Shown here: positions 2,548-41,437 of the stretch, in pieces
Layout: each line of letters begins with the position of its first letter
Position numbering within the stretch: the first letter of the stretch is position 1
NCBI GenBank assembly: GCA_029263395.1
Contig: JAJCXO010000046.1
Coordinates: forward strand, 1 to 41,437
Direction: 5' to 3'
From: Acidobacteriota bacterium
GTDB taxonomy: Bacteria > Acidobacteriota > Thermoanaerobaculia > Multivoradales > J023
Length of the DNA stretch: 41,437 nucleotides
The notes under the pieces: model-generated
What the model saw: the letters and a program-made list of their open reading frames with translations, nothing else
Databases searched by the model: none
What the model was told of the DNA's origin: nothing
Translations under genes and position numbers: made by a program

Positions 2548-3258
2548 TCAAACTCTCCTTCTGCGGTTCTCGAACTTCACTACGGACGGCCTCGGCAACG
2601 GATCCTCCAGCAATCCGGCTTCGTAGGCCAAACGAATGGCCTCGCGCCGTCGCTTGACCTGAAACTTGTCCAATATCTTGTGGACATGATTCTTGACCGT
2701 CGGCAACTTGATTTGCAGCTGCTGCGCGATCTCTTTATTGCGTAAGCCTGCAGCCACCAATTGCAGAACTTCCGACTCTCTCGGAGTCAACTGGACTGCG
2801 GGATCGATAGTGCGGGTGCAGCGTTGCGACGGATGGCTGGCCAACTCTTCGATTCTGGCGAGAACCGAAGCCGCAACCTGCGGTGAACAAGGGGTCTGGC
2901 CACGACTCACAGCTTCGATCGTTTCCAGCATCTCGGAAAAAGATGCCTCCCGAGAAACGTATCCGGTCGCTCCAGCCTCGATGTAATCCAGGATTTCGTC
3001 GCTACCCTCGTTGCCCAAGAACAAGATGTTGAGTTTCGGGTTCGTCTCACGAAGCTCGCGGATCGTCTCGCAGACCTCACGTTTCCCTAGGCTGGCATCC
3101 ACCAGGACAACATCCGTCTCCAGGGTGCGCAGCTGGTCGATCGCGTCATCTCTGCTATCCGACGAACCAACACAAGTCACGGCGCCATGGCTGCTCAACG
3201 AGCCGACGATGGCCTCGGAGAGAAGTCGGTAACGATGGATTAGGAAGACGTCAACCAC
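2548..3258 (-). CDS. NarL/FixJ-type response regulator with atypical receiver and LuxR HTH
   Basis: A 236-aa protein with an N-terminal receiver-like domain (about 1-120) and a C-terminal LuxR/GerE HTH (about 155-215, LTPRESEVLQLVAAG then KEIAQQL and TVKNHVHKIL). The receiver keeps an Asp54 at the phosphoacceptor position (VVLVDASLG) but lacks the acidic pair that binds magnesium (IHRYR where IVDDHP is usual) and has Arg103 in place of the conserved Lys. Normal phosphorylation by a histidine kinase is therefore doubtful, and the domain may sense something else or simply dimerise. The start is GTG. It is the third of three tandem same-strand regulators and lies just upstream of the ACP-KS operon, so that operon is a plausible target (inference). 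Confidence 0.85.
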   Translation of the reverse strand: MVDVFLIHRYRLLSEAIVGSLSSHGAVTCVGSSDSRDDAIDQLRTLETDVVLVDASLGKREVCETIRELRETNPKLNILFLGNEGSDEILDYIEAGATGYVSREASFSEMLETIEAVSRGQTPCSPQVAASVLARIEELASHPSQRCTRTIDPAVQLTPRESEVLQLVAAGLRNKEIAQQLQIKLPTVKNHVHKILDKFQVKRRREAIRLAYEAGLLEDPLPRPSVVKFENRRRRV

Positions 3259-3416
3259 GGAGTCATCTCTCTCAGCCAGTGCAGAACCTCGTCCACTGTC
3301 GCAAGACCGTTACAGTACGGCGAGGTGGCCACCCTCGCCAAAATTGCCGAGACCGCCAGCACAGCCCTACACCAAGTGTTCGAGCTCGCGCAGTGCAACT
3401 GCCTTTGCCCCGCAGG

Positions 3417-36376: not shown

Positions 36377-36549
36377 GGCTAGCTATCGTATGGCAAGAAG
36401 GAGCCAATCGCATGAGGCGCAACAGATCTTCTCGCCATAGACGTGTTCATTCTGCTCTCAGGCGTGCCAGGCCCTAAGGCGGTCACGGTAGGCTCGAGGG
36501 TTACGCCCCGGCCTGGTGCTACGTGATGCCAGGCACGTCTAGCAGGTCG

Positions 36550-36878
36550 TCATTCGCTGTTGTTTGCTCGAAGAATCCGCTTCTCCGTTGGCTCGCTTTC
36601 CGGAACGAAGCAGTGAAGATTACCGTCCGGCCCATCTATGTAGAGTCGGCCACATTCGAAACATTGCCACATCAACCGTGTTGGTGAAGACAGGATGCTT
36701 CTCGACAACATGTATGCGTGATTCACTGGTAAGTCACCTGACGCTACGCGGTCGCGACTTCGTCGTCGATCCCATCCCACACACGGTCGATTTCCTGATC
36801 AGGTGTGAGGTGCGCTTTGTGGGAAAGGCGGTCGGTCGCGTCGGATATGGACGCACCGCAACGGCAGTCGATCTTCAC
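36550..36878 (-). pseudogene. Frameshifted small CxC/CxxC zinc-binding-type protein gene
   Basis: Two pieces of one small protein lie in different frames on the minus strand. The first runs from a GTG at 36878 to a TAG at 36744 and reads VKIDCRCGASISDATDRLSH, then KAHLTPDQEIDRVWDGIDDE. The second, ending at 36550, reads MLSRSILSSPTRLMWQCFEC, then GRLYIDGPDGNLHCFVPESE. From memory, small proteins with a CxCG start and a WxCxxCGRLYI centre are a recurrent family of about 100 aa found among immunity and accessory genes; the two halves together fit one. The break near 36745-36765 needs a one- or two-base indel, so it is either a real pseudogene or a sequencing error. Confidence 0.7.
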
Positions 36879-36913
36879 GGAGTCCAAAATACGAACGCGA
36901 CCCTGCTCACCGA

Positions 36914-37405
36914 CTAACGGAGCGCGCAGTGGGGAGGGGGTTCAGTGGAGCGAGCGGTTAGCCCGATAAGAGGGCTGCTTTCTAGGATCGATGCCGTATG
37001 GGCAACAAGATCTTCCAGCCGCTCATACTGATAAAAGGTGCCGTGTCGAGAGTTGCTGAGTAGTCCTACGATGAATCTGGAAGTCGATCTCTCGTAGGCC
37101 GTCGTTCCCATCACCGGAATACCGAGCTCGCAAGCTAGGGCGACCTCTGCCCCCACGCCGAGAGACGGGACATCAAGGAATGCGACGAGAAGGCTACTAC
37201 GCCTGATCATCGCCAAGTCCAAATCGAAGACTTGCTCGGGGAGCAGACCAGAATCTGCTTGGGGGTGAGTCTTGGTGTGCGGCAGATAAACTGAGATCCC
37301 CTCTTCTGAAGCCATTGATGCAAAGCGCTCATAGAACCGGCATCGGCTGGTTAGGTCCTGAGCCCCAGCGAGAGCCCCTGAGAGATAGACTTGAGTTTCA
37401 GGCAT
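36914..37405 (-). CDS. Nucleoside 2-deoxyribosyltransferase-like protein
   Basis: A 163-aa protein of the nucleoside 2-deoxyribosyltransferase fold. It has an N-terminal strand VYLSGAL (Tyr7), LPHTKTHPQ, the helix VFDLDLAMIRRSSLLVAFLD with Asp61, Asp63 and Asp78, and GVGAEVALACELG, where Glu87 occupies the position of the catalytic nucleophile. Family members cleave or exchange the N-glycosidic bond of (deoxy)nucleosides or nucleotides; relatives include DNPH1-type dNMP hydrolases and MilB-type CMP N-glycosidases. The start ATG at 37405 overlaps the ImmA/IrrE gene by 8 bases. It is the last gene of the four-gene nucleotide operon, and base removal from a nucleotide made or modified by its neighbours is a reasonable guess. 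Confidence 0.78.
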   Translation of the reverse strand: MPETQVYLSGALAGAQDLTSRCRFYERFASMASEEGISVYLPHTKTHPQADSGLLPEQVFDLDLAMIRRSSLLVAFLDVPSLGVGAEVALACELGIPVMGTTAYERSTSRFIVGLLSNSRHGTFYQYERLEDLVAHTASILESSPLIGLTARSTEPPPHCALR

Positions 37406-38420
37406 AGGCTTTCTTTGTTGGATCGGTTGCTACCGATTCCTCTTGCTCTGATCTAATGGGCGCCAGGCTGAGAGTCGGTTTTTTCGAAGAGAGAAGGCGA
37501 CTTGACCGCGAATGAAACAGGAGTACGTCGTCAGCGCTCTTAAACTCTGCCTCATCGGGTACCGGAAAACCATTCAGTACGGGCTGTGTCAGATCACTTC
37601 TTCGGTGGACAGAGGTTCCAAGAGAATCACCAAGCCAGCTGCAAGAGCCTAGTGTAATCTCAGCACCCTCAGATGTCACACACCTATTCTCTACAGCTGT
37701 CGCCTCCACTATACGAGAATTTAGGTGCGAAGTGGTAGCTCCGCTGGGCAGCCACACCCGCCGCCCTCGGCCTCTATACCCTGGGTAACAGGCCACTACA
37801 CGAAAAACAGACTCTTCACGATCGTGCCGAGCATGTTTTCGCCAGCGGATGCAGCAGCCATTCGGGAGAATCCAAGCGATCTGCCAGAGAAGAGCCGCCC
37901 ACGATACTAAGAAACGGTCGTAGAGTTGCGAAAGTCCTTCTGGACCGAGCCCAACTTCAAGAATCCCTTGACGCAATGTTGTAGACGGCATCAGCAGTTC
38001 GGCCGCTCCTGCGTTACAGACCCGCTCAAGCTCCTTGTGTCTTTCAGATGTGTCGTCTAACGAAGCAATAAGGACAGGATCCTGGATCAACTGAATGATC
38101 AACGCATGTGCCAGTTCGTGAGCCACTGAAAAGCGTGATCTTCGCCATTTCTTTCTGAAATTCACATCGTGAAGAGCGATCTCGAAGCCTCCCCGACCGT
38201 CAGTGTGAAGAGATGCCGTCCCAGTACCGGCTCGGTGCGCAGCAGCGGTCCAACTGAACTGCACACCGAGTTGACGGCAAATTCCGCGCAGACCGATAGG
38301 CGGGTTTCCAAGTCCAACAGTTCTAAGAAGCTCGCGCATTGCAGATCGCACAGCTTCATCGGGGCTCTGCGTGTTGTAAGTCCGGCAGAGTGCAGTTAGG
38401 CCGGGAGAAGTCGGCTCCAC
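37398..38420 (-). CDS. ImmA/IrrE-family metallopeptidase (M78-like)
   Basis: A 340-aa protein with an IrrE N-terminal-like metallopeptidase domain (about 20-200). The zinc motif HELAH (101-105) lies in RRSRFSVAHELAHALI, and Glu141 in NAGAAELLMPSTTL is the likely third ligand. The C-terminal 140 residues are unassigned. Family members cleave repressors (ImmA in ICEBs1, IrrE/PprI in Deinococcus) and are common in mobile and phage-defence loci. No XRE-type repressor is encoded nearby, so the substrate may be a neighbouring protein. The GTG start immediately follows the TAG of the thymidylate-synthase-like gene, and the end overlaps the deoxyribosyltransferase gene, so the peptidase is embedded in the operon rather than appended. 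Confidence 0.82.
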   Translation of the reverse strand: MEPTSPGLTALCRTYNTQSPDEAVRSAMRELLRTVGLGNPPIGLRGICRQLGVQFSWTAAAHRAGTGTASLHTDGRGGFEIALHDVNFRKKWRRSRFSVAHELAHALIIQLIQDPVLIASLDDTSERHKELERVCNAGAAELLMPSTTLRQGILEVGLGPEGLSQLYDRFLVSWAALLWQIAWILPNGCCIRWRKHARHDREESVFRVVACYPGYRGRGRRVWLPSGATTSHLNSRIVEATAVENRCVTSEGAEITLGSCSWLGDSLGTSVHRRSDLTQPVLNGFPVPDEAEFKSADDVLLFHSRSSRLLSSKKPTLSLAPIRSEQEESVATDPTKKAYA

Positions 38421-39755
38421 CTAGTCGCTCCTTGATTCTTCCGCTTTGATCACAGCTAGCGCTTCCTTGAACTCCTCCTGAGATATATCTTCGCCGTCCC
38501 GCGCTGCTATCTTACCTCCAAAGTGTCGCTGAAGAGCGGCATATCGACGCCAGGGCAAATCCGCTTGGGCCTCGCGTTCCCAATCTTGCACTCGCAGGTC
38601 CAGCGATTGCCCAACAGCAGATGATCCAATCGAAACATACTTGACCAACTCGGTTTGGGGAGTGAAATCCAGCAGGTTACTGACGTTCATTGCGCGAGGT
38701 GCAGAAATCTCGAAGGTCTCCTTTGGCAAGTATGAGCACCAAGGCTCTTCCAAATAGGCCTCTATTGCGGCCAGAGCGTCTCCATCCTCGTTTGCCCGGA
38801 CTACATGCGTCAGGAGAAGGAGAAAGTATTGATTCCAGTACTCCGCGAGTGAATCCGAGCCACGCTTGATCCACTCCTCGATATTGGTGCTTGATATTGC
38901 AGCGGACCCATGGCGCAGCTGTGCCTCAAGGATGACTAGCTCCCTTATCTGGCTCAAAGGCTTAGGGGTCTCTGGCATGGCCGGCACCTTGTAGCCAGAC
39001 CCGTCCTGCCCCATGGCCCATGCTTCTACAACTTCCTGCGCTTTCTGGAAATCACGCTCATAAACATGCATAGATATTGCCTGGTGAGTTAAACCGGCGA
39101 AATCAATTCCCAGTTCCCTGGCAACCGCTTCCGCAAGGAGAGAAAACTCAAAGAGATTATATGGCAATAGATTGAACGCATTGTTCGAGCGCATAACCGT
39201 AGTGGAATATAGCGCACCACCTCTAATGTGGTAGAAAATCCCAAACGTACAAGGCACATCTCGAGATTCCCGCGCAGCATCTTCGGGGTGATAGATCGCA
39301 ACAGCTGCTCTTCTGGAGGCAGGGTCTTTTCTCAGCCTTTCTATTACTGAGACTAGCTGATTAAGGCCAGGCCGAGGCTGCAACATCCGTTCGCCATAGT
39401 TGGACCCGGGTACAGACACCCCATCATCGCTGAACCGTTTGACTTTCGGTTCATAGAATGCGATGTCCGCCAAGCGATCACTCCCAGCCATCATCCATAC
39501 AAATCGAGCTACCGCCGCTGGAAGATTGATTTTCCTCGCAGGGTTGAAGACCAACCGTTCTATCGGATTTTCGATGCTGAGGGTCGAATTCATGATTTCT
39601 TTCGTTACTTGCCCAGCTCCAGTCGAACGAGTGTCTGCCGAAGCCTTTAGCACTTGCCCTCTATCAAGTACTAGTTTTAACGTTTCCACATATGCTTCAT
39701 CCGCGTTTCCAACTACCCCAGAATTCCCAGCGAGCAGATACGATTTCGTCGCCAT
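38421..39755 (-). CDS. Divergent thymidylate synthase-like protein with C-terminal extension
   Basis: A 444-aa protein. Residues about 65-260 match the ThyA/dCMP hydroxymethylase family: SRRAAVAIYHPED; nucleophile Cys169 in RDVPCTFGIFYHI; RSNNAFNLLPYNLFEF (phosphate- and base-binding loop) and MHVYERDF (aligned with the DxHxY motif). Changes by eye: Arg84 stands where the catalytic Glu of ThyA should be (ARFVWMMAG against HELLWFLQG), and Asn replaces the Asp of RSxD. Asn200 is kept where dCMP hydroxymethylases have Asp, which favours a uracil-type base. A helical C-terminal extension of about 180 residues is unassigned. Housekeeping ThyA has about 264 residues. The ATG at 39755 with GGGAGG 5 bases upstream is preferred over a TTG one codon earlier. 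Altered chemistry, or binding without catalysis, is likely. Confidence 0.82.
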   Translation of the reverse strand: MATKSYLLAGNSGVVGNADEAYVETLKLVLDRGQVLKASADTRSTGAGQVTKEIMNSTLSIENPIERLVFNPARKINLPAAVARFVWMMAGSDRLADIAFYEPKVKRFSDDGVSVPGSNYGERMLQPRPGLNQLVSVIERLRKDPASRRAAVAIYHPEDAARESRDVPCTFGIFYHIRGGALYSTTVMRSNNAFNLLPYNLFEFSLLAEAVARELGIDFAGLTHQAISMHVYERDFQKAQEVVEAWAMGQDGSGYKVPAMPETPKPLSQIRELVILEAQLRHGSAAISSTNIEEWIKRGSDSLAEYWNQYFLLLLTHVVRANEDGDALAAIEAYLEEPWCSYLPKETFEISAPRAMNVSNLLDFTPQTELVKYVSIGSSAVGQSLDLRVQDWEREAQADLPWRRYAALQRHFGGKIAARDGEDISQEEFKEALAVIKAEESRSD

Positions 39756-39776
39756 CAAAACCTCCCGTGTTGTTTT

Positions 39777-40334
39777 CTAGATTTCAATTTCTTTCAGAAC
39801 CATGGACAACCTCTCGTCAATAGAACCGCTAACCGTTCTGTGATCTAGAGCATGGGTCTCCAGCAGACTCCTAATTTCATCATCGATCGCCGATTGGAAA
39901 TTCGCATCCCCTTCCCTTATCCCGTCATCCTGTACTATGAATTCGATTGGAACATAGAACAGTTGGTCGTAGCTACTCATATGCTTGATGACTAGAAACT
40001 CAAGAATTTCAGTAATATCCTCAGATTCCATTTCTTCAAGGAACAAGTGTTTGGTGTATGCCCAATGGTCCAAAATTGCTCGGTCGCAGACACAAACGGA
40101 AGAACGGTCTACAGACTGCTCATAGATCGGCTGCCCAACCAGCAGCAAGAGCTGTTTCAAGAGCTGATTATTGCCTCTCCTGAAGTACTCTTGGTCTTGA
40201 GCACGGTCGCATATGATTCGTGGAATCTCCGGAGTCACATCAACTGAGATTCGGCGCAAATTAAGTTCGCTGACCAGGACCGTTGCCAACGTAGTCTTGC
40301 CTGTACCATGGGCTCCTACCAAAGCAATGCGCAT
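39777..40334 (-). CDS. P-loop nucleotide kinase/ATPase (AAA_28-like)
   Basis: A 185-aa P-loop NTPase with Walker A GAHGTGKTT (7-15). TPEIPRIICDRA follows, then a lid-type region and VCVCDRAILDHWAYTKHLF, where the DRAxxD motif is typical of deoxynucleoside and NadR-like kinases. The single compact domain suggests a kinase for a small nucleoside or nucleotide rather than a motor ATPase. The start at 40334 is fixed by AAGGAG 9 bases upstream, and the protein fold begins exactly there; longer upstream readings have no coding look. It is the first gene of the four-gene nucleotide operon, with 21 bases between its stop and the start of the thymidylate-synthase-like gene. Confidence 0.82.
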   Translation of the reverse strand: MRIALVGAHGTGKTTLATVLVSELNLRRISVDVTPEIPRIICDRAQDQEYFRRGNNQLLKQLLLLVGQPIYEQSVDRSSVCVCDRAILDHWAYTKHLFLEEMESEDITEILEFLVIKHMSSYDQLFYVPIEFIVQDDGIREGDANFQSAIDDEIRSLLETHALDHRTVSGSIDERLSMVLKEIEI

Positions 40335-40983
40335 ATATTCAACTCCTTGACTATTGTGATTCAAAAAAGGCGTCAAGAAGGTTAACGCCGTGCGCCCGGG
40401 TGGCGGCATAGCCGCCATCTCTAGGCGCGTTGTCATGCTCGCGTAACTCCCTGCTGCGCAACTTAGACGCTGGTGGATTCCTGCATAACGCGAGCGGATC
40501 AAGAGCCAGCGGGCATACTCCAGGACTTCGGCTCCGACAAATAAGACTCTCAGGCGTCCGCGTAGCAGCAAGGCACTCGCAGCGTTTCTTCTCGGAAATC
40601 TCTGATTGCCCTCGATTCCGAGCAAGATGGCAGGCCGCTAGAAGATACTCCGAAATGCCCGTAGTGTTGACGAAGCACTCAGCACTTCCACCGTTATCCG
40701 GGGAAGCCTCTGCCCCGGATAGGCTAATTGTGCTTGTCATACTCAATCGATGCATCCCTCTGACTCCAAAGCAGATCCGACCCGTAACGAGATGTCGAAT
40801 TCGCCTGGAATCTTACTCGATCGAGTCCGCAGAGACAAATCTACGAATTGGCGAGCACTTTACGCGGTAACACCTCTGCGTTCCGAGTCCGTTGGCTCCG
40901 GGCGTCCCCCCGTTTTCGCGAAGTTGCGCTCTCCGCTACACCTCCCCACTCGCTGTTCGGTACTAGCGGCCGAACTCCGAGCC
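40335..40983. other. 649-bp region without a recognised gene
   Basis: Several short ORFs cross this stretch on both strands, but none has a ribosome-binding site plus protein-like composition, and the longest minus-strand one is rich in Cys, Arg and Pro without pattern. It probably contains the promoter of the four-gene nucleotide operon. I found no tRNA gene or duplicated attachment site here, so the boundary of the accessory region cannot be placed. Confidence 0.5.
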
Positions 40984-41274
40984 CTACCTCTGCCCGGATT
41001 CGACGGGCACTCCCTGACTGGCATGAACACCAAGAAGGACTACTTGCGGGTCACCCTGGGCCTCGTAAGAGGCAGCCAGCAAATACGGAAAACCGAACAT
41101 ACCTCCCAAGAAAATACCCTGGAACCCAAACACAAACCCTTTCTTTGTGAAGCCCTCGCGCCACGAGACCAACAACAAGAGATGGTTCAAGAAATCCGTA
41201 TTGAACTGTGAACGCCAATCCAAAGGCAGCAGGTCACCGAAGAGAACTGCCAGCCAATTGATGCCCTTCGTCAT
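40984..41274 (-). CDS. Small predicted membrane protein
   Basis: A 96-aa protein with two hydrophobic segments (NHLLLLVSW and GFVFGFQGIFLGGMFGFPYLLAA) flanked by LFGDLLPLDWRSQFNTDFL and a polar tail (YEAQGDPQVVLLGVHASQG). The ordered, amphipathic composition looks like a true protein rather than an antisense shadow, but I do not know the family. The ATG at 41274 lacks a strong ribosome-binding site. It is transcribed toward the nucleotide operon on the same strand, separated by about 650 bases. Confidence 0.5.
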   Translation of the reverse strand: MTKGINWLAVLFGDLLPLDWRSQFNTDFLNHLLLLVSWREGFTKKGFVFGFQGIFLGGMFGFPYLLAASYEAQGDPQVVLLGVHASQGVPVESGQR

Positions 41275-41437
41275 GACTCAGCAATGTATCGAGTTGAGTT
41301 GACCAACAAGCCCCACACTCGATAAAATAGCGGTAACCGAGCGTAATAAGCTCACTACGTCTGGAGCGATCCACCGAGACGGTCACGACAAGAACCGTCA
41401 CCACAAAAACGGGCACGACGGGGGCGGCAACCCCCAC

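What the first reader, a model, noticed from the sequence alone, without database searches (positions are those of the whole stretch)
36914..40334. Compact four-gene operon of nucleotide enzymes plus an ImmA/IrrE peptidase
Seen: P-loop kinase, ThyA-like protein, HELAH metallopeptidase and nucleoside deoxyribosyltransferase-like protein on one strand with gaps of 21, 0 and -8 bases, in a visibly less GC-rich stretch. Known: ThyA-family plus deoxyribosyltransferase-family pairs start mildiomycin and bacimethrin pathways (MilA/MilB, BcmA/BcmB), and ImmA/IrrE peptidases are switches in mobile elements and defence loci. Inference: either a modified-pyrimidine pathway or a phage-responsive system in which kinase, ThyA-like and glycosidase-like proteins alter the nucleotide pool and the peptidase senses or triggers. 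I know of no described system with exactly this set.
Basis: partly seen in the sequence, partly recalled or inferred. Interest (0 to 1): 0.85.

Follow-up and report, generated by a model that had tools for sequence, protein, structure and literature searches.

The report
Mobile uracil-nucleotide enzyme and protease cassette
Four overlapping genes (a nucleotide kinase, an altered thymidylate-synthase-like enzyme, a stress-protease and a nucleotide-splitting enzyme) stay together in very different bacteria, and probably form an uncharacterised module that handles unusual DNA building blocks, perhaps to fight viruses.

Summary
In detail: kinase, ThyA-like, ImmA/IrrE-like (M78) and NDT-like genes at 36914-40334, minus strand, spacings 21, 0 and -8, GC 0.52 against 0.59. 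The set recurs: all 5 intact loci found with this ThyA-like clade (window, Pedobacter, two Alphaproteobacteria, a Solirubrobacterales MAG) carry M78 and NDT directly downstream; 4 of 5 carry the kinase, convergent in two. It is rare and patchy (own phylum: 1 of 396 genomes, itself), so probably horizontally moved. The ThyA-like protein is MilA-like in fold with an extra C-terminal tail, but its active site is new: Cys and the uracil-type Asn are kept, while E58 is Arg and D169 is Asn in 5 of 5 and in a mycobacteriophage relative; seven of nine other TS-like homologues compared keep Glu and Asp. The NDT-like protein resembles DNPH1-type N-glycosidases, the M78 protein PprI and CapP. Best reading: a damage- or phage-responsive module acting on uracil deoxynucleotides. 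The linkage is shown; chemistry and defence are inferred. I call it a new variant of nucleotide-centred conflict systems; I found no anti-phage test of it, and one key survey could not be read.

The parts
39777..40334 (-). P-loop (d)NMP-kinase-like gene, 185 aa; GAHGTGKT Walker A and DR motif; first gene of the operon
   Evidence: AAA_28 7e-17; phrog_2107 'thymidylate kinase' 1e-25; relatives in L003, L004, L094, none found in the genome of L005
38421..39755 (-). ThyA/MilA-like protein (444 aa from ATG) with a C-terminal extension of about 100 aa absent from the compared homologues outside the set
   Evidence: distinct from the genome's housekeeping ThyA
39504..39506 (-). codon of Arg85, the position of catalytic Glu58 of E. 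coli thymidylate synthase
   Evidence: R in 5 of 5 set members and in phage Candle; Glu in MilA
39249..39251 (-). codon of Cys170, the catalytic Cys (E. coli C146), kept
   Evidence: all 16 rows
39180..39182 (-). codon of Asn193, the position of folate-contacting Asp169
   Evidence: N in 5 of 5 and in phage Candle; Asp in MilA, Asn in the flavin-dependent dCMP hydroxylase AfhB
39156..39158 (-). codon of Asn201, the base-determining position (E. coli N177): uracil type
37398..38420 (-). M78 (ImmA/IrrE, PprI/CapP-like) zinc metallopeptidase with a C-terminal part of unknown fold, 340 aa
   Evidence: (capP 5e-16)
38106..38120 (-). HELAH zinc-binding motif of the M78 peptidase (third ligand Glu132 also kept)
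   Evidence: H101, E102, H105, E132 invariant in the 6 rows
36914..37405 (-). nucleoside-deoxyribosyltransferase-like, DNPH1/MilB-type N-glycosidase gene, 163 aa; overlaps the M78 gene by 8 bases
37145..37147 (-). codon of Glu87, predicted catalytic Glu of the PSLGVGAE motif
   Evidence: kept in 5 of 5; same motif in Rcl/DNPH1

Best explanation
A probably horizontally moving, stress- or phage-responsive module that works on uracil deoxynucleotides. SHOWN by comparison: the ThyA-like, M78 and NDT genes form a conserved core with overlapping or abutting frames, usually with a kinase; the P-loop, M78 zinc site, NDT Glu and ThyA-like Cys are kept; the ThyA-like enzyme keeps the uracil-type Asn but lost two residues used in folate chemistry. 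INFERRED: (1) the ThyA-like enzyme binds dUMP through Cys170 and alters C5 by a reaction other than ordinary methylation; (2) the NDT-like enzyme is a DNPH1-type 5'-monophosphate N-glycosidase that splits this nucleotide (or NAD), so the core can drain or gate the dUMP pool; (3) the kinase, where present, competes with it and lifts the modified monophosphate to a di/triphosphate that poisons replication or acts as a signal; (4) the PprI/CapP-like peptidase is the switch, probably activated by ssDNA or damage during infection, and releases the enzymes by cleaving a partner. No repressor gene lies in the operon, so the substrate may be a module protein, for example the ThyA-like C-terminal extension.
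For: Conserved core in 5 of 5 intact loci, kinase in 4 of 5. Horizontal spread: the set in 1 of 396 own-phylum genomes, itself; low GC and GC3; a phage integrase and an AAA_25 ATPase gene on the L004 contig about 8 and 4 kb away, an HTH_17 gene and a DUF5712 gene (family of unknown function; recalled as mobilisation-type) near L003. A separate canonical ThyA in the genome. MilA-like fold (Z 28.5, 300 residues, rmsd 3.0). Active-site census and clade support 100/98 for set plus phage. DNPH1 similarity. PprI and CapP similarity (Z 11.7 and 11.6). Precedents seen in papers: a thymidylate synthase and a 5-hydroxymethyluracil kinase among newly validated anti-phage domains (PMC13092281); base-modified dITP as immune signal made with a dNMP kinase (PMC12948488); CapP activated by ssDNA (PMC13373217).
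Against: No infection or enzyme data exist. No clear defence island: of six neighbours tested (three each of L003 and L004) one matched PADLOC models, as a Ser/Thr kinase; L094 lies among housekeeping-type genes (by eye). No repressor or membrane effector in the set. The kinase is missing in L005 and not found in its (possibly incomplete) MAG. E58R and D169N could mean a catalytically dead ThyA domain that only binds nucleotides. The Asn/Asp rule for uracil or cytosine may not be strict: TS-like proteins beside genes that Pfam names for thymine modification (L098, L011, and L097 by eye) carry Asp. The M78 C-terminal part was modelled below pLDDT 50. Only five intact loci were found.
Confidence: 0.4

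Rival explanations
1. Kongming-like signalling: the ThyA-like enzyme makes a base-modified uracil nucleotide, a module or phage dNMP kinase turns it into a triphosphate signal, and the NDT-like protein or the M78 sensor is the effector that receives it.
For: Kongming makes dITP with a phage dNMP kinase (PMC12948488 passage); the kinase here has phage relatives (27 viral loci at 25-36% identity; phrog_2107) and is absent from L005, as if a phage could supply it; NDT-like genes are listed in retron operons, and a retron paper titled on NAD hydrolysis is cited there (PMC12548924 passages; that its effector is NDT-like is recalled); DrHyd proteins are called NADase effectors in PMC7824862 (passage; that DrHyd belongs to the NDT superfamily is recalled).
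Against: No adenosine-deaminase, HAM1 or SIR2 domain among the four proteins; the NDT-like protein has no fused sensor domain; no receptor for a nucleotide was identified.
Confidence: 0.2
2. Counter-modification: the module destroys modified nucleotides of phages (for example hydroxymethyl-dUMP), the ThyA-like protein removing or binding the C5 group and the glycosidase splitting the nucleotide.
For: Several solved relatives of the NDT-like protein are titled 5-hydroxymethyl-dUMP N-hydrolase; loss of folate-linked residues with retention of Cys, Arg and Asn would suit a retro-reaction or binding; the DndF kinase has been proposed to sense phage-derived modified nucleotides (PMC10853773 passage).
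Against: The closest relative outside the set is itself a phage protein, encoded one gene away from a DNA polymerase gene, so the same active site serves a phage; no phage-specificity data.
Confidence: 0.15
3. A small antimetabolite pathway of the mildiomycin/bacimethrin kind, making a free modified pyrimidine.
For: TS-like plus NDT-like genes with a methyltransferase occur on Streptomyces and Priestia plasmids, in Priestia also with HAD hydrolase and transporter genes; MilA and CMP/hydroxymethyl-CMP hydrolases are fold relatives.
Against: Those two relatives carry Asp at the base-determining position and Glu and Asp at the catalytic ones, ours Asn, Arg and Asn; no export, methylation or phosphatase gene recognised directly beside the sets (by eye; transporter- and SurE-like frames lie 5 kb or more from the L094 set); an M78 protease is unexpected in such a pathway.
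Confidence: 0.1
4. Stabilisation or nucleotide-salvage cargo of mobile elements, not linked to phage.
For: Integrase on the L004 contig; ImmA/IrrE-type genes are common in mobile elements (established knowledge); related TS-aGPT-Pplase-ImmA sets sit on plasmids.
Against: L094 lies alone among housekeeping-type genes; no antitoxin or partition gene recognised in the set.
Confidence: 0.15

Closest known systems
MilA/MilB (CMP 5-hydroxymethylase and hydroxymethyl-CMP hydrolase of mildiomycin synthesis)
   Same: Best fold match of the ThyA-like protein (Z 28.5; sequence profile 4e-48), including the helical part to residue 340; NDT-like partner of the same broad N-glycosidase kind (CMP/hydroxymethyl-CMP hydrolase 4jem, 2e-5)
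   Different: Uracil-type Asn instead of Asp; E58 to Arg and D169 to Asn; extra C-terminal extension; M78 protease and kinase present; no pathway genes recognised beside it
CapP (CapH+CapP regulators) and PprI/IrrE
   Same: Same M78 peptidase core and zinc ligands; padloc capP 5e-16; best solved relatives are IrrE/PprI and CapP
   Different: No CapH/DdrO-like repressor gene in the set; C-terminal part of unknown fold; sits inside the operon among enzymes
TS-like + aGPT-Pplase3/ADDT + ImmA/IrrE cassettes (L097, L098, L011, L132, L133)
   Same: TS-like enzyme coupled to an ImmA/IrrE protein, on plasmids or in scattered genomes
   Different: Have a gene that Pfam names thymine pyrophosphorylase/amino acid:DNA transferase; Asp at the base-determining position in the three compared; M78 protein usually with an HTH part; no NDT-like gene or such kinase seen next to them
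Anti-phage systems with thymidylate synthase, dNMP kinase and 5hmdU kinase domains (DefensePredictor, PMC13092281)
   Same: TS and dNMP-kinase domains named in the figure of experimentally validated E. coli systems
   Different: Gene-by-gene content not readable here (supplements not available); no NDT or M78 among the abbreviations of that legend
Kongming (dITP signalling)
   Same: Base-modified nucleotide and dNMP kinase idea
   Different: None of its domains (as recalled) is present
AfhB flavin-dependent dCMP hydroxylase of phage HY126 (9iqu/9iqc)
   Same: TS fold; shares D169 to Asn; second-best kind of structural relative (Z 21.8)
   Different: Asp at the base-determining position; shorter, without the C-terminal parts; flavin use by our protein is untested

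Membership tests
MilA-type CMP/dCMP hydroxymethylase | cytosine-determining Asp at the N177 position | tested here: not met
   Asn201 in 5 of 5; MilA has Asp
MilA-type CMP/dCMP hydroxymethylase | catalytic Glu (E58) and folate-side Asp (D169) | tested here: not met
   Arg85 and Asn193 in 5 of 5; MilA has Glu and Asp
MilA-type CMP/dCMP hydroxymethylase | same fold over the whole enzyme | tested here: met
   VIA-align Z 28.5, 300 aligned, rmsd 3.0; profile 4e-48
Canonical thymidylate synthase (ThyA) | E58, H147 and D169 with C146 and N177 | tested here: not met
   Only C146 and N177 kept; H147 is Thr/Ala; the housekeeping ThyA lies elsewhere, E 1e-124
DNPH1/MilB-type nucleotide N-glycosidase (NDT superfamily) | catalytic Glu in the P-S-x-GVG-x-E motif | tested here: met
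   (5 of 5); motif alignment to Rcl
DNPH1/MilB-type nucleotide N-glycosidase (NDT superfamily) | hydrolysis of (modified) nucleoside 5'-monophosphates | not testable with these tools
   needs purified enzyme
CapP/PprI metallopeptidases | HExxH plus downstream Glu in the M78 core | tested here: met
CapP/PprI metallopeptidases | adjacent HTH repressor substrate (CapH/DdrO) | tested here: not met
   no other gene within the core of the five loci; an HTH_17 gene lies 1.4 kb from the L003 set and a frame with a sub-threshold HTH_36 match 2 kb from the L004 set; upstream of the L004 set the contig ends
CapP/PprI metallopeptidases | activation by ssDNA | not testable with these tools
   biochemistry needed
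TS + aGPT-Pplase + ImmA cassettes | aGPT-Pplase/ADDT gene next to the TS-like gene | tested here: not met
   no such match in the four window proteins; present in L098, L011, L132, L133
Kongming | KomA adenosine deaminase, KomB HAM1 and KomC SIR2 domains (family names recalled) | tested here: not met
   no such Pfam match in the four proteins
DefensePredictor TS-containing system | same gene set and homologous proteins | tested here: inconclusive
   only main-text passages, three sections and legends were read; sequences not available
Flavin-dependent TS-fold hydroxylase (AfhB) | flavin in place of folate | not testable with these tools
   only the shared D169 to Asn change is seen

The most novel reading that the evidence does not exclude
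A previously undescribed immune module built on a TS-fold enzyme with new, non-methylating chemistry (possibly flavin-dependent or reverse C5 chemistry) on dUMP: its modified uracil nucleotide is raised by a dedicated kinase or erased by a DNPH1-type glycosidase, and a PprI/CapP-type protease decides which way the balance falls when phage or DNA damage is sensed.
Probability: 0.3. Interest if true: 0.88.

Novelty: new variant of a known kind. Interest (0 to 1): 0.62.

Why it matters
If true it would add base-modified uracil nucleotides, and a TS-fold enzyme with an unusual active site, to nucleotide-based bacterial immunity. It would also place a DNPH1-type enzyme, studied in humans as a remover of toxic hydroxymethyl-dUMP (recalled), inside a bacterial conflict module. 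The operon is about 3.4 kb, so cloning it and testing phages and nucleotides in a laboratory strain is direct.

Tried and rejected
Considered and rejected: (a) chance neighbours: excluded by recurrence in four other genomes; (b) housekeeping thymidylate synthesis: the genome has its own ThyA, with a DHFR-like frame (by eye) on the same stretch, and no ThyX; (c) prophage module: IMG/VR scans with the ThyA-like protein, its alignment and the NDT alignment confirmed no relatives; the M78 scan gave 69 loci, none with a TS, kinase or NDT relative in the DNA held, and the kinase scan 27 loci, one of them with a TS, M78 or NDT relative, whose best match was to canonical ThyA; these scans use short patterns and can miss; (d) complete known antimetabolite pathway: see rivals; (e) RNA element: no Rfam match in 36400-41437; (f) transposon remnants upstream of the operon: no Pfam match in the six ORFs of 40351-41437 tested and no plasmid match of 40335-41437.

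Led nowhere: the M78 alignment in 247 own-phylum and 240 alphaproteobacterial genomes (E <= 1e-18) returned one genome each, the query's own; the genome of L094, which has a member, was presumably not in the second draw. tRNA genes: none in the five loci scanned. Promoter- and terminator-like sites did not exceed shuffles. The M78 C-terminal part could not be modelled. Plasmid searches: kinase none; M78 one Deinococcus record; ThyA-like 99 plasmid and 1806 phage records, none covering 80% of the query in one place; of the 99 I looked at 8, chosen by eye from the listed ones, and of the phages at one.

Literature: ten text searches were made. Six bear on the TS, NDT and protease combination and two are wider (27, 91); no title or abstract start among the listed results describes this four-gene set, but several lists were capped well below the number of papers found. 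Two more searches sought AfhB papers without success. I read passages of six papers (PMC10853773, PMC12839542, PMC12948488, PMC7824862, PMC12548924, PMC13373217) and the outline with abstract, passages and three sections of PMC13092281. The most relevant survey (Burroughs et al. 2015, 10.1093/nar/gkv1267) is not held, so prior description of this neighbourhood cannot be excluded.


Full report
OBSERVATION. On the minus strand: kinase 40334-39777 (AAA_28, PHROG 2107), ThyA-like 39755-38421 (Thymidylat_synt, 2e-20), M78 38420-37398 (Peptidase_M78, HELAH), NDT-like 37405-36914 (Nuc_deoxyrib_tr, 2e-8). ATG 39755 of the ThyA-like gene has GGGAGG in front, which gives the 21-base spacer; the M78 GTG abuts the ThyA stop; NDT overlaps M78 by 8 bases. 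The stretch is poorer in GC (0.521 against 0.590) and in GC3 (0.49-0.58 against 0.61-0.80 for 13 other window genes).

RECURRENCE. A scan of genome contigs with the ThyA-like protein confirmed three relatives among 24 pattern matches: Pedobacter nototheniae (L003), an alphaproteobacterial MAG (L004) and a Solirubrobacterales MAG (L005). Profile searches (E <= 1e-40) of 396 own-phylum genomes, 301 of the family of L003, 385 of the class of L004 and 399 of the class of L005 (the query genomes included) gave 9 genomes: the window's and the three above, one further full set (G969, read as L094), one truncated ThyA-like gene without the partners (G1012, L095), and three genomes with other TS types (G259, G553, G682; L096-L098). 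So 5 intact members are known. In 5 of 5, M78 and NDT-like genes follow in that order with overlapping or abutting frames. The kinase precedes in the window and L003, is convergent and overlaps the NDT end in L004 and L094, and is absent from L005 and not found in its MAG. Identities to the window are 37-45% for ThyA-like in L003-L005 and 34% over 384 residues in L094, 26-34% for M78 in L003-L005 (30% over 213 residues in L094), 32-38% for NDT and 37-48% for kinase: far diverged, but kept together. The core is thus ThyA-like, M78 and NDT-like; the kinase is a common addition.

MOBILITY AND CONTEXT. The L004 contig (re-read as L099) carries an AAA_25 ATPase gene about 4 kb and a phage integrase about 8 kb from the set; L003 lies near an HTH_17 gene and a DUF5712 gene (family of unknown function; I recall it as mobilisation-type). 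L094 sits alone between a pectate-lyase-like gene and a valyl-tRNA-synthetase-like gene (named by eye). The module is rare: only the window's own genome among 396 of its phylum. Three neighbours each of L003 and L004 were tested with PADLOC models; one of the six matched, a Ser/Thr kinase (PD-T4-6 and others), and such models also fit ordinary kinases. Neighbours of the window, L005 and L094 were read only as ORFs, apart from the Pfam scan of the window's flanking small frames. In L004 the ThyA-like gene lies at the contig start, and upstream of the window's kinase only 1.1 kb is left, without a Pfam match, so much upstream context is unseen.

ThyA-LIKE PROTEIN. The genome has a separate canonical ThyA (E 1e-124) and no ThyX. 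The window protein's best solved relative is MilA, CMP 5-hydroxymethylase: profile 4e-48, VIA-align Z 28.5 over 300 residues. AfhB, a phage flavin-dependent dCMP hydroxylase by its entry titles, comes second (Z 21.8); ordinary TS reach 19.6. The model has mean pLDDT 70.3 and is weak at 93-128, 157-171 and 352-379. In an alignment of 16 TS-like proteins, C146, R166 and H207 are kept in all. The set members (5 of 5) and mycobacteriophage Candle gp74 share Arg at E58, Thr/Ala at H147, Asn at D169 and Asn at N177. The nine other TS-like homologues all have Asp at N177; seven of the nine have Glu at E58 and Asp at D169, the exceptions being one Geobacillus paralogue (E and E) and L096 (S and H). 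The housekeeping ThyA has E, H, D, N. The N177 position sets uracil or cytosine preference (established; TS N229D with dCMP is among the solved entries). Hence a uracil nucleotide is the likely substrate. Against a strict rule: TS-like proteins beside genes that Pfam names for thymine modification (L011, L098, and L097 by eye) carry Asp. D169 contacts folate and E58 belongs to the catalytic water network (recalled), so ordinary methylation is unlikely; AfhB also has Asn at D169, while its residue at E58 is uncertain in the alignment. A tree puts the five set members and Candle in one clade with support 100/98; within it the five alone have only 64/78, and some rows are long branches. All set members carry a C-terminal extension of about 100 residues with an AAR...D...S motif that the other homologues lack.

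NDT-LIKE PROTEIN. Best solved relatives are a nucleoside deoxyribosyltransferase (7m5h, 2e-11), Rcl/DNPH1 (from 1e-8, several titled 5-hydroxymethyl-dUMP N-hydrolase), a CMP N-glycosidase (4jen, 4e-6) and CMP/hydroxymethyl-CMP hydrolase (4jem, 2e-5; taken to be MilB). The P-S-x-GVGAE motif with the catalytic Glu is kept in 5 of 5. I read it as a monophosphate N-glycosidase; NAD cannot be excluded, since NDT-like retron effectors are linked to NAD hydrolysis (reference title seen in PMC12548924; the link to NDT is recalled).

M78 PROTEIN. PADLOC capP 5e-16, weaker matches to RmrA models; profile matches to IrrE/PprI (3e-11) and CapP (9e-9); structural matches to PprI (Z 11.7) and CapP (Z 11.6) within residues 8-195. 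Zinc ligands are invariant in six rows, the sixth being a Deinococcus plasmid protein that matches over residues 8-290 and lies next to DUF4062 and uracil-phosphoribosyltransferase genes near a type IIG restriction-modification gene. So a relative of this protease accompanies a different pyrimidine enzyme there. CapP is activated by ssDNA and cleaves CapH (PMC13373217 passages). No HTH gene is in this operon.

RELATED KINDS. TS-like genes with an aGPT-Pplase3/ADDT gene and an ImmA/IrrE gene recur: L097, L098, Rhizobium (L011), Neorhizobium (L132) and Pantoea (L133) (the aGPT identity in L097 and the ImmA identity in L097 and L098 are by eye, not scanned). TS-like plus NDT-like plus methyltransferase genes on Streptomyces and Priestia plasmids look like antimetabolite operons. 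DefensePredictor lists thymidylate synthase and 5-hydroxymethyluracil kinase among domains newly validated in anti-phage systems, names dNMP kinase and NMAD domains in that figure, and predicts further nucleotide-modifying domains, aGPT-Pplase among them, as defensive but unvalidated (PMC13092281: passages and sections 5, 7 and 15). The present set differs in its NDT and M78 partners and in its TS active site, as far as those texts show.

VERDICT. A real, conserved and probably mobile module; function inferred. I file it as a new variant of nucleotide-centred conflict systems. It is not a MilA/MilB pathway (defining residues not met) and not a CapHP regulator (no repressor in the set), though parts may work like them.

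Noticed in passing
L097, L098, L011, L132, L133: A second recurrent cassette: TS-like + aGPT-Pplase3/ADDT + ImmA/IrrE protein, in L098 and L097 also with a uracil-glycosylase-like frame and a HigB-like small frame (these two named by eye; the first had no Pfam match in L098).
   Followed up: partly
L006:8007-9005 (Mycobacterium phage Candle gene 74): Phage TS-like protein with the same E58-to-Arg and D169-to-Asn signature as the window protein, encoded one gene away from a DnaE-like polymerase gene; these phages may have unusual uridine or thymidine chemistry.
   Followed up: partly
L093:5324-7864 (Deinococcus psychrotolerans plasmid): DUF4062 + uracil-phosphoribosyltransferase + M78 protein related to the window's M78 over most of its length, near a type IIG restriction-modification gene: possibly a sister module.
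   Followed up: partly
L007:1489-8737 and L010:3526-8429 (Geobacillus and Streptococcus salivarius plasmids): TS-like genes with PqqD-family, QueA-like and AAA-family ATPase genes, looking like a peptide or nucleoside natural-product operon.
   Followed up: no
L134:4414-9588 (Sinorhizobium fredii plasmid): TS-like gene next to metallophosphoesterase, MazG_C and uracil-DNA-glycosylase genes: another nucleotide-modification neighbourhood.
   Followed up: partly
L095 (G1012), about 2638-3402: Truncated ThyA-like gene of the set's type; no match to the kinase, M78 or NDT proteins in the 9 kb read: a decaying remnant.
   Followed up: partly
window 36550-36780, minus strand: Small frame with a zinc-ribbon-like stretch (WQCFECGRLYIDGPDG), just downstream of the operon; no Pfam match above cut-off.
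   Followed up: partly
window 40369-40389, minus strand: Terminator-like hairpin with a T run just upstream of the kinase; the scan as a whole shows no excess over shuffles.
   Followed up: no
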